A stretch of DNA of 64,000 bases, taken from assembly GCA_013995675.1 (NCBI GenBank), contig VWRR01000009.1, positions 248,001 to 312,000 on the forward strand, read 5' to 3'. The notes below the pieces were generated by a model. That model worked only from the letters and a program-made list of their open reading frames with translations. It was not told where the DNA came from and did no database searches. Source of the DNA: Cyanidiococcus yangmingshanensis (lineage: Eukaryota > Rhodophyta > Bangiophyceae > Cyanidiales > Cyanidiaceae). The stretch's first letter is position 1; each line of letters opens with the position of its first letter. Both the position numbers and the translations under genes were made by a program. Positions 4,371 to 59,067 of this stretch are shown one piece after another.

Positions 4371-5114
4371 GTGTACGCGCTTTGCGTCGCATATCTGAAA
4401 CCAGCGACGTGCTCAAGCGGAACCTGCCTGTTGCGACGTTTGCGGGGCGAAAACTGCAACGTGCAGCGGCAACGAGCGCCAGTTCAGATAGCATATCGCC
4501 TGTGGGCGGAGAAGCTGCGGTCACGAAGAGCGCACCGCACTCTGCGGCGCTGCCTGTGGGCTACGCGGACGACTACTTCCGCGAACCTCACCTTGCTGCC
4601 GCGCGGAGACCCCACGAAACGAGCGTTCACCTACATGATGTTGGGTTCCGCGAAGCTTGTCGCAGCATCTGCCGTTCGAGTCCTCATTCTCAAGTTCATC
4701 TACACTATGAGCGCTTCTGCGGATGTGTTAGCCCTCGGAACTGTGGAAGTCAACCTAGCAGCGATACCTCTTGGGCAAACTGCCACGATCAAATGGCGTG
4801 GCAAACCAGTCATGATCCGCCATCGTACACCAGACGAAATTGAGGCTGCTCGTCGAGATGATAACGCGTCTCTCCGAGACCCTGAAGCAGACTCCTCGCG
4901 AGTTGTCGACCCGGAGTGGCTCGTGGTCATCGGCGTCTGCACTCATCTCGGCTGTGTCCCGATTGCCCATGCTGGCGACTGGGGTGGATTCTTTTGCCCC
5001 TGTCACGGCAGCCACTACGATGTGAGCGGACGAGTGCGAAAAGGCCCAGCTCCGCTGAATTTGGAGGTGCCGAAGTACACGTTTACTGAGGAAGGCAAGC
5101 TAATTATTGGCTGA
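4371..5114 (+). CDS. Mitochondrial Rieske iron-sulfur protein (cytochrome bc1 complex)
   Basis: The C-terminal 165 residues match the mitochondrial Rieske subunit very well: [11 protein letters not shown], a membrane anchor at about 86-112, [21 protein letters not shown], and the 2Fe-2S ligands C190-T-H192-L-G-C and C209-P-C-H212-G-S-H. It transfers electrons from ubiquinol to cytochrome c1 on the intermembrane-space side of the inner membrane. The first 80 residues in this frame are rich in Cys, Trp and Arg and look unnatural. The overlapping frame from 4211 to about 4610 instead has an Ala/Ser/Arg transit-like sequence leading to [16 protein letters not shown], which fits the segment before DPTKRAF in plant homologues. 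The true product may therefore start near 4211 and need a +1 shift at about 4605-4612. The core is certain; the start is not. Confidence 0.85.
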
Positions 5115-7073
5115 TTGATGCTCGATTGCACTACTCACACGCTTCGTGAGTAACTGCGGAGATACATACACCCGCCCTGTTTGAAAGAACGAGCTATGTG
5201 GACCGCGCAGCAGCGATGAGACTTGTTCAGTGTCATGTAGCATTGCTCTGAGCTTGGCGGGAAACGCGAGTAAATTAGCGCACGTTATGTCGAACATTTA
5301 TCGATCTACTGCAAAACGGTCGTTCAGCGTATTTTGACCTACAAACTGCCAACAGAGCGCATCCAGACCTTGCGCTGAGGCTTTTTACTACCGCCTCTCA
5401 CCCATGAGATTCACGAGACACACTCCTGGCAGAGGTGCACAGCAATATTTTTCGAACACTCTGAAACTCAAAATGAAAACGCTTTTCGTAAGTGTCCGGG
5501 CCTCTCTTGCAGATCTCGAACACGTATTGCGACGTTTGAAGGTGATCGAAGCGGATTCCCTGTTCTGCTTGCTACACGCGCGCAAAACGAAATGACGAGC
5601 AGACAGAACGACACAACCGCATCCGTAAACAGGAATTTCGAAATCTCTTCCAAATCCGGACTGTTTTCGCAGTGCTTCAGATTTTGTGACAACCTCGATG
5701 AACGAGCACTCCTCTATTTGTGGAACGTACGAATGCCGGATTTTACTACTGATGAATCTCATCGTTTGATAAGCATGTTTTTCTACCAGCAAGGATTTCT
5801 GATGGGTAAACTAGAGTCGTTCCCGCTCGGCGGAGCATGCTCGCTGCGGGGGCGAGATACTCTCACGGAAGTGGATGGAGCACGAGCCGCCTCACTATCC
5901 AGGAGCCGGTCGGATCTGAGCACTTTCAGGTCGCTCGCCTCAAAGCGGTAGCTGGTCCGCGTGTGCTCAAGGGCTCTGGAACAACAAAAACGGGAAACCG
6001 ATAAATGCCGCATAAACAATAAAACAGCTCCCCTGGGCGGCACACATATCAAAGTGCGGTTGAAGTAACGAAATGAACTCTGTGAGCGCGGCTTGACTGA
6101 GATACCAGCATTCAGTGGTTTCCCTTAAAGATTGAGAGCGGGAGCGTCCTGCCTTGCCTCCTTGAGGACGATCGCAGGCTGAATAAAATAGTGACTTAGT
6201 TTCGCCCTCGTGTCTTGGCCGAGCCCCGCAGAGCGGGTCGTCGGAGATGCAAAGTTGTGCGAGTGGCGGTTTCGAAATTGCTTCAGAAGCTACGTGTATC
6301 AGGTTCTTCGAATATGCCCGAAACCAGCGAGTTGTAAATGCGAACCAGATAGTTCTGAGAGCGCCGTGACCTGATCTCGCTTATCTGAAGGATCGCGCGC
6401 CCAGCGGGATCAGAAGTGAAATTCGTTCTTTGAATCTGCTTCACCGGCGCCTGCAAAATCGTGGTCGGAAATTCGATTTCGACGACGAACGCAACGTCGC
6501 GTGAACGTTCGAATAGGGTTAGCGCATACAATCGTTTACCCTTTTGGTCCAGCATCGCAAATCTTCGCTGGGTAACATCTCGGCCCATTCTCGGGTAAGA
6601 TAAAGGACATCGGGATGTCGGGATACGGCCGGTTTATCACGCCATCGCTAAACCCATTCAAATGCTCGGATCGCATTGGAAATATCGGTGCGCGGTGTCT
6701 CCGAAAGATCTCTGAAGTGCGTTCACACAGGCTGGTCCGTGTTTAGAGCATAGCATGCCAGAAGGCGAACGAGATCCCAGGCGGGCAAAGCCCTCAGCAA
6801 ACCCAGAGTTAGCAATGCGCGAGCTCTCTTGGGCTTCTTGATCCGGGAAATGGTTACTTCATGCACTGTCATCTCTAGTGCATATAAGAGTGTCCCTCTC
6901 TACCGAAGAAATCAGCGGGAACGTGGCAGGGTTGCCGTCGGTACGAAAGAATTTTTAATTGAAACGAACTGATCTAGCAAAAAATTCGATCAAGCCTCGC
7001 TCCGGTTGCGATTCAGGCTGCCGGTCCCTGTCGAGTTGCGTCTCCGGAACACAATCTTGGCGTCCTCCCCTGT
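5115..7073. other. Long spacer, mostly without a convincing gene
   Basis: Nearly 2 kb of lower-GC sequence after the Rieske gene. Short ORFs occur on both strands (for example 5388-5792 minus and 5592-5951 plus), but none shows conserved motifs or a consistent composition. One weak candidate at 6283-6588 is listed separately. No tandem repeat or tRNA is evident. Confidence 0.4.
6283..6588 (-). CDS. Possible small hypothetical protein or last exon
   Basis: A 101-residue reading with mixed hydrophobic and charged strands (MGRDVTQRRFAMLDQKGKRL, then VAFVVEIEFPTTIL) that looks more protein-like than neighbouring ORFs. The same frame is closed by a stop shortly upstream (6634-6636). It could be a short protein, the end of a spliced or frame-disrupted gene, or chance. 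A beta-rich reading reminiscent of PsbP-fold proteins came to mind, but I cannot support it. No function is assigned. Confidence 0.22.
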   Translation of the reverse strand: MGRDVTQRRFAMLDQKGKRLYALTLFERSRDVAFVVEIEFPTTILQAPVKQIQRTNFTSDPAGRAILQISEIRSRRSQNYLVRIYNSLVSGIFEEPDTRSF

Positions 7074-58243: not shown

Positions 58244-58590
58244 CGCAAATGCTTGGGACCCAACCAACCTGGGACAATAGAAACGCTCGCTTGCTTTATG
58301 ATCGTCTGCACTAACGCAAATGCTTGGGACCCAACCAACCTTGGGAGGACAGAAACGCTCGCTTGCTTTATAGTCGTTTGCGGTGGCGCAAATGCTATAG
58401 ATCAAACCTTGGGAGGACAGAAACGCTCGCTTGCTTTATGATCATCTGCACTAACGCAAATGCTAGAGATCAAACCTTGGGAGGACAGAAACGCTCGCTT
58501 GCTTTATCATCGTTCGCGGTGGCGCAAATGCTAGAGATCAAACCTTGGAACAATAGAAACGCTCGCTTGCTTTATGCTCGTTCGCCACGG
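58244..58590. repeat. 68-72 bp tandem repeat abutting the second H3 stop
   Basis: CGCAAATGCT marks units at 58244, 58315, 58387, 58455 and 58523 (steps 71, 72, 68, 68). Each contains AGAAACGCTCGCTTGCTTTAT. The last unit runs directly into the H3 stop codon, and its end (CTTTATGCTCGTTCGC) is the H3 3' coding end itself. Earlier units carry near-copies of it (CTTTATGATCGTCTGC, CTTTATCATCGTTCGC). The array therefore seems to include a scrap of H3 3' sequence. Confidence 0.9.
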
Positions 58591-59067
58591 ATGCGACGCG
58601 CCAGCTGGATGTCCTTCGGCATAATCGTCACCCGCTTCGCATGGATCGCACAAAGGTTCGTGTCCTCAAACAGGTTCACAAGGTAAGCCTCCGCTGCCTC
58701 CTGCAGCGCCAGTACCGCAGACGACTGGAAACGAAGGTCCGTCTTAAAGTCCTGCGCTATCTCGCGCACAAGGACGCTGGAAAGGAAGCTTCCGGATAAG
58801 GAGCTCCGTAGACTTTTGGTAGCGGCGGATCTCGCGAAGCGCCACCGTTCCCGGGCGGTAGCGGTGTGGCTTCTTCACACCTCCGACAGAGGGTGCCGAC
58901 TTGCGGGCAGCCTTGGTCGCCAGCTGCTTACGAGGCGCCTTGCCGCCAGTTGACTTGCGCGCAGTCTGTTTCGTACGGGCCATATCGATAGAGACAGAGA
59001 CAGAGACAGAGACTTGGGGTTAACACGTAAAGAGAGGTATCCGCGCTAATAACAAAAGCGGGTCACA
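58569..59067. repeat. Histone H3 duplication, copy B
   Basis: Counterpart of the 49559-50056 segment. Both junctions are sharp: similarity begins just outside the stop codon and ends near GGTCACAG in the leader. Confidence 0.9.
58572..58983 (-). pseudogene. Histone H3, second copy with one extra base
   Basis: The sequence is the same as the H3 gene at 49562-49972, with one extra base in the stretch read CAG-CGT-C(C)TT on the coding strand (plus strand around 58772). This moves the frame +1 after Phe-Gln-Arg and ends translation soon after; the correct frame continues to the normal stop. Leader sequence with the GTCTCT units is conserved too. Divergent pairing with H4 across 1.8 kb is the usual histone arrangement. 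Because the rest is undamaged, this is either a sequence error in a functional gene or a very recent lesion, so the pseudogene label is provisional. Confidence 0.8.

What the first reader, a model, noticed from the sequence alone, without database searches (positions are those of the whole stretch)
4600..58983. Eight or nine frame breaks in conserved genes, all in the +1 direction
Conserved genes that otherwise read perfectly need one extra base skipped at these sites: Era near 9073-9080 and 9156-9165, aspartic protease 2 near 24857, MSH5 near 27350-27385 and 28845-28860, ArgRS near 48130-48175, cyclin near 51295-51308, H3 copy B near 58772, and probably Rieske near 4605-4612. ORF phases show every shift is +1 and none is -1. 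For eight independent breaks with either sign equally likely, a uniform sign has a chance of about 1 in 128. Insertion-biased long-read error is the simplest cause. Programmed +1 frameshifting is a less likely alternative: I see no shared heptamer or in-frame stop at the sites, and H3 copy A lacks the base. Several extra bases can be placed next to a C.
Basis: partly seen in the sequence, partly recalled or inferred. Interest (0 to 1): 0.78.

Follow-up and report, generated by a model that had tools for sequence, protein, structure and literature searches.

The report
Single-base insertion errors in algal assembly
Nine places in conserved genes of an alga-like genome carry one surplus DNA letter each, and what could be tested fits small mistakes in an uncorrected long-read assembly better than an unusual way of reading genes.

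Summary
Seven genes (Rieske, Era, aspartic protease 2, an MSH5-like MutS, ArgRS, a cyclin-like gene, histone H3 copy B) are split over reading frames by nine breaks, each net +1. Where homology fixes the join (protease 2, ArgRS, H3B), the pieces are contiguous in the family with one base between them. Era was doubtful: its outer ORFs alone fit one -1 break, but a 79-sequence Era profile prefers two +1 breaks. A simulated control finds both signs about equally well, so the uniform sign (two-sided p = 0.004 for 9 of 9) is not a detection bias.

Best explanation: uncorrected single-base insertions in a long-read consensus. H3 copies A and B show no substitution over 487 bp but two surplus bases in B, one upstream of the coding region. 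At eight of nine breaks the first in-frame stop starts 24 nt or more further on, and no 7-mer is shared. The genome looks like a cyanidiophyte red alga (inferred); a published PacBio-only, Quiver-polished assembly of that kind (C. merolae Soos) shows fitting symptoms but was not tested as the source. No reads were available. The finding is ordinary, useful as a data-quality warning.

The parts
4600..4618 (+). break in mitochondrial-type Rieske protein gene (about 4211/4226-5111), net +1, probable
   Evidence: Downstream ORF 4368-5111 matches TIGR01416 at 2-176 and UCR_TM only from position 28, and has no in-frame ATG before 4635; the upstream frame has ATGs at 4211 and 4226
9073..9082 (+). first break in Era GTPase gene, net +1
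   Evidence: Frameshift-aware profile alignment with 79 bacterial Era proteins puts it at 9079
9156..9173 (+). second break in Era GTPase gene, net +1
   Evidence: Profile alignment puts it at 9173; of three frames tested only the middle one matches E. coli Era better than shuffles, p 0.0135 uncorrected, others 0.68 and 0.51
24850..24858 (+). break in aspartic protease 2 gene (24035-25766), net +1
   Evidence: Pfam Asp profile 127|128 contiguous across the break, one base between pieces; ab initio model +1 at 24853
27350..27385 (+). first break in MSH5-like MutS gene, net +1
   Evidence: ORF phases; ab initio model +1 at 27364; codon usage favours the used frame on both sides. No significant homology hit for the piece upstream (best E 0.16)
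28842..28849 (+). second break in MSH5-like gene, net +1
   Evidence: MutS_V profile ends at 65 in one frame and resumes at 67 in the next, four bases between; not called by the ab initio model
48142..48160 (+). break in arginyl-tRNA synthetase gene (46816-48958), net +1
   Evidence: Pieces align to residues 24-326 and 327-577 of the same solved ArgRS chain 4oby_A, one base between; ab initio model +1 at 48151
51286..51308 (+). break in cyclin-like gene (51064-52075), net +1
   Evidence: Cyclin_N matches only from profile position 75 in the downstream frame, 22 bits against a cut-off of 23; no hit for the upstream piece; ab initio model +1 at 51285
58770..58776 (-). break in histone H3 copy B, net +1
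   Evidence: Pfam Histone 60|61 contiguous with one base between; copy A lacks the surplus base
49562..49972 (-). histone H3 copy A, intact control copy (136 aa)
   Evidence: Complete reading frame; no substitution against copy B over 58569-59055

Best explanation
The nine breaks are artefacts: single surplus bases left in the consensus of a long-read assembly that was not corrected with accurate short reads. The living organism most likely has intact genes at these places. Shown here: each break is a net one-base gain in frame, the pieces are otherwise readable, and the sign is uniform. Inferred: that the cause is consensus error, and that the source is a PacBio-type assembly of a Cyanidiococcus/Cyanidioschyzon-like red alga. 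The rate, 9 in about 34.8 kb of coding ORFs counted, is about one per 3.9 kb; it is approximate because the intact part was counted as stop-to-stop ORFs.
For: One base between contiguous profile pieces in AP2, ArgRS and H3B. H3 copies A and B: 0 substitutions and 2 single-base gaps over 487 bp (58569-59055), both surplus in B, one coding and one upstream. The affected genes include ArgRS, Era and Rieske, which a cell can hardly lose (established knowledge). Codon usage is best in the used frame in 14 of 14 segments flanking the breaks in six genes; H3B was not included. No 7-mer is shared among the nine sites (interval plus 8 nt each side) against a random mean of 3.1. At 8 of 9 breaks the first in-frame stop starts 24 nt or more beyond the interval. 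A published assembly of fitting type exists: C. merolae Soos (named as C. yangmingshanensis in PMC9812998), PacBio RS2 P4-C2, canu plus three rounds of Quiver, no short-read correction in the passages seen; 12.33 Mb, 54.33% GC, 9.4% multi-exon genes against 0.5% in 10D, BUSCO complete 85.2% against 90.4% (PMC6629376).
Against: No reads, no own genome and no orthologous alga sequence were available, so the error was never seen directly. The literature I saw does not establish an insertion bias in PacBio data: PMC5964698 tabulates 2.9% insertions and 8.8% deletions in raw reads. The coding model on its own called Era as one -1 and did not call Rieske, the second MSH5-like break or H3B. The surplus bases are not significantly tied to G/C runs: 9 of 9 intervals hold GG or CC, p = 0.097. 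The window's GC (56.3%) is a little above the published genome average.
Confidence: 0.94

Rival explanations
1. Programmed or general +1 ribosomal frameshifting: the bases are real and ribosomes skip one nucleotide at each site, as in Euplotes.
For: All nine breaks are +1 and coding constraint continues downstream, which is what recoding would leave.
Against: In Euplotes shifts occur at in-frame stop codons, mostly after AAA (PMC10235951, passages). Here at 8 of 9 breaks the first in-frame stop starts 24 nt or more beyond the interval. No 7-mer is shared by any two sites. H3 copy A encodes the protein without a shift. One surplus base in H3B is upstream of the coding region. The apparent four-base anticodon of the tRNA at 31880-31962 is best read as tRNA-Trp(CCA) with an 11-nt intron (my reading).
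Confidence: 0.02
2. Real frameshift mutations: the genes are recent pseudogenes or one damaged haplotype.
For: H3B has an intact twin, so its loss could be tolerated.
Against: Genes that are normally essential are hit, the frames beyond the breaks stay open with coding-like codon use, all signs are the same, and 0 substitutions accompany 2 indels between the H3 copies over 487 bp.
Confidence: 0.02
3. Short introns of length 3n+1 that the reader mistook for single bases.
For: Possible in principle at the first MSH5-like break, the cyclin-like gene and Rieske, where no contiguous homology fixes the join; cyanidiophytes have a few dozen introns.
Against: At AP2, ArgRS and H3B there is room for one base, at the second MSH5-like break for four. 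Published Cyanidiales genomes have 27-44 introns in about 4,800 genes (table seen). Splice signals were not searched for.
Confidence: 0.02

Closest known systems
Gene-fragmenting indel errors in long-read assemblies (e.g. those treated by Kastor, PMC12007338; passages seen)
   Same: Short indels split otherwise complete genes without a recoding signal
   Different: The nanopore example in that paper is dominated by false deletions; here all nine are surplus bases
C. merolae Soos (C. yangmingshanensis) PacBio assembly, PMC6629376 (passages and section 5 seen)
   Same: Similar GC content, compact nearly intronless genes, long-read-only polishing in the passages seen, and an excess of multi-exon gene models as frame breaks could cause
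   Different: Identity with this window was not tested; no sequence of it was available
+1 frameshifting in Euplotes (PMC10235951; passages seen)
   Same: Frequent +1 breaks in conserved genes
   Different: There stop codons mark the sites; here they do not

Membership tests
Long-read consensus indel error | single-base indel between otherwise contiguous coding pieces | tested here: met
   Met at 4 of 9 breaks where homology spans the join: AP2, ArgRS, H3B one base between contiguous profile positions; second MSH5-like break one codon plus one base. Era by profile alignment. Not resolvable at Rieske, first MSH5-like break, cyclin-like
Long-read consensus indel error | indels without matching substitutions between near-identical copies, also outside coding DNA | tested here: met
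   H3 A/B: 0 substitutions and 2 indels over 487 bp, one indel upstream of the CDS; 3 substitutions and 1 further gap in the last 21 bp of the 508-bp match
Long-read consensus indel error | extra base absent from accurate reads | not testable with these tools
   No reads and no own genome held
Long-read consensus indel error | preference for homopolymer runs | tested here: inconclusive
   9 of 9 intervals hold GG or CC, but random intervals of the same lengths reach this with p = 0.097
Euplotes-type +1 frameshifting | in-frame stop codon at the shift site | tested here: not met
   At 8 of 9 intervals the first in-frame stop starts 24 nt or more beyond the end; only the wide first MSH5-like interval reaches one
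Programmed +1 frameshifting in general | shared slippery heptamer | tested here: not met
   0 shared 7-mers; shared 6-mers 11 against a random mean of 9.2; the commonest 5-mer is in 4 sites, P 0.14
Programmed +1 frameshifting in general | full-length protein made from shifted mRNA | not testable with these tools
   Needs proteomics or ribosome profiling
Spliceosomal intron | room for an intron between coding pieces | tested here: not met
   One base only at three sites, four bases at a fourth; not excluded at Rieske, first MSH5-like break, cyclin-like

The most novel reading that the evidence does not exclude
A cyanidiophyte alga tolerates real single-base insertions in essential genes through efficient, signal-poor +1 ribosomal frameshifting or transcript-level correction, which would be a non-triplet reading outside ciliates.
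Probability: 0.015. Interest if true: 0.92.

Novelty: not a real feature. Interest (0 to 1): 0.1.

Why it matters
As an artefact it matters for users of the assembly: at about one break per 3.9 kb of coding sequence, a good share of gene models would be truncated, merged or given false introns, and gene-loss, intron and pseudogene counts from it would mislead. If the bases were real it would mean wide non-triplet decoding in an alga, which nothing here supports.

Tried and rejected
Quadruplet-decoding tRNA: ARAGORN reported a four-base anticodon at 31879-31962. The Rfam alignment and sequence fit tRNA-Trp(CCA) with an 11-nt intron in the anticodon loop; this reading is mine, no intron-aware tRNA program was run. 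Rejected.

A single -1 break in Era: called by the coding model, but two simulated insertions 80-94 nt apart are called -1 in 76 of 200 runs, +1+1 in 11 and missed in 113, and the Era profile prefers two +1. The 44-aa middle segment alone hit nothing in NCBIfam. One search was meant for that segment but used the wrong frame; it found nothing and is not evidence.

Shared slippery site and G/C-run preference: no support. Missed broken genes: of 199 further ORFs of 72 aa or more lying mostly in stretches the coding model left as non-coding, 184 were scanned in two Pfam calls; of the other 15, 13 were scanned singly and two antisense to H3B (58557-58796 and 58687-58950, plus strand) were not scanned. 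New hits were CHCH/NDUFB7, cytochrome b5, histones and a few weak ones. H2A, H2B and H4 read through intact. The CHCH and cytochrome b5 ORFs were not checked for breaks. The first MSH5-like piece has no significant homology.

First genome-contig scan with an Era piece found no relative. Paper searches used: 8 of 10. Cyanidioschyzon with ribosomal frameshifting gave 2 papers, unrelated by title and start of abstract. Cyanidiococcus/Soos/frameshift gave 169 papers with two of the terms, 10 listed; the two cyanidiophyte papers among those hold no 'frameshift'.

Full report
What the window is. It is DNA of a compact eukaryote: GC 56.3%, 0.52-0.62 per 2 kb, with long uninterrupted ORFs for DNA polymerase delta, SerRS, TGT, RIO2, UbiA, asparaginase and others, histones H1, H3 in two copies, H2A, H2B and H4, and a DUF6737 protein, a family that I recall as cyanobacterial and plastid-related. 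This fits a Cyanidiales red alga (published GC 54.6-55.0% and 27-36 introns for Cyanidiococcus and Cyanidioschyzon; PMC9812998, passages). The identification is an inference; the window's genome is not held.

Observation. Six genes show a +1 step between overlapping open frames directly from ORF phases: Rieske, protease 2, the MSH5-like gene (twice), ArgRS, the cyclin-like gene and H3 copy B. Piecewise profile matches show how little lies between the pieces. Asp profile position 127 ends at 24853 and 128 begins at 24855. Residue 326 of a solved ArgRS (4oby_A) ends at 48144 and residue 327 begins at 48146; with Pfam, TIGR00456 and some other chains the matches overlap by a few positions, in Pfam with the same one-base offset. 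Histone positions 60 and 61 leave one base at 58773. MutS_V resumes one codon and one base later. This leaves no room for introns or larger rearrangements at those sites.

Era. The outer frames differ by -1, which could be one lost base. An Era profile from 79 bacterial proteins, aligned with frame changes allowed, prefers two +1 steps at 9079 and 9173 over one -1 step by about 32 score units before penalties, and still by about 12 at 20 per step, the highest penalty at which both were run. Of the three frames only the middle one resembles E. coli Era between the breaks (p 0.0135 uncorrected, against 0.68 and 0.51).

Sign. A codon-usage model trained on 16 unbroken ORFs found five frame switches in the window: four +1 and Era as -1. 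It did not call Rieske, the second MSH5-like break or H3B. Simulation on 13 of the same training genes found 186 of 300 insertions and 177 of 300 deletions with no sign error and no false call on the unmodified genes; close double insertions are often called as -1 (76 of 200) or missed (113 of 200). So nine of nine +1 is not a detection artefact; p = 0.0039, or 0.031 with Rieske and both Era breaks left out.

Why error. H3 copies A and B are identical over 58569-59055 (487 bp of B) except for two surplus bases in B, one in the CDS and one upstream; three substitutions and a third gap occur in the last 21 bp at the edge of the duplication. Divergence by mutation would normally bring substitutions first (established knowledge). 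Codon usage favours the used frame on both sides of the breaks in 14 of 14 segments from six genes. No 7-mer is shared, and at 8 of 9 sites there is no stop codon at the break, unlike Euplotes (PMC10235951, passages). The density is 9 in 34.8 kb of coding ORFs counted.

Candidate source. PMC6629376 (passages and section 5) describes C. merolae Soos, sequenced with PacBio P4-C2, assembled with canu and polished three times with Quiver; the passages seen mention no short reads. It reports 9.4% multi-exon genes against 0.5% in 10D, and lower complete BUSCO (85.2% against 90.4%). I read this as gene models stepping over false frame breaks; the paper does not say so in what I saw. PMC9812998 (passages) names inaccurate gene models and the misnaming of the Soos strain as problems of earlier data. 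The link to this window is plausible but untested.

Limits. I saw no reads. [quoted passage not shown] Rieske, the first MSH5-like break and the cyclin-like break are less firmly placed than the other six. Binomial odds assume independent breaks and equal prior odds of either sign.

Verdict. Observation confirmed, artefact by far the likeliest cause, low biological interest.

Noticed in passing
31880-31962 (-): tRNA that ARAGORN gives a four-base anticodon; best read as tRNA-Trp(CCA) with an 11-nt intron.
   Followed up: partly
49559-50063 and 58569-59076: Two nearly identical H3 genes 9 kb apart share the coding region and about 90 bp upstream, with abrupt ends of similarity, suggesting recent duplication or gene conversion.
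   Followed up: partly
52388-61118: Histone-rich stretch (H2A, H2B, H3B, H4) interspersed with tandem repeats, among them units of 87, 168, 100, 44, 68, 94 and 73 bp, and an 88-bp array just beyond it at 61139-61417.
   Followed up: no
21876-25766: Two aspartic protease genes in tandem on the same strand.
   Followed up: no
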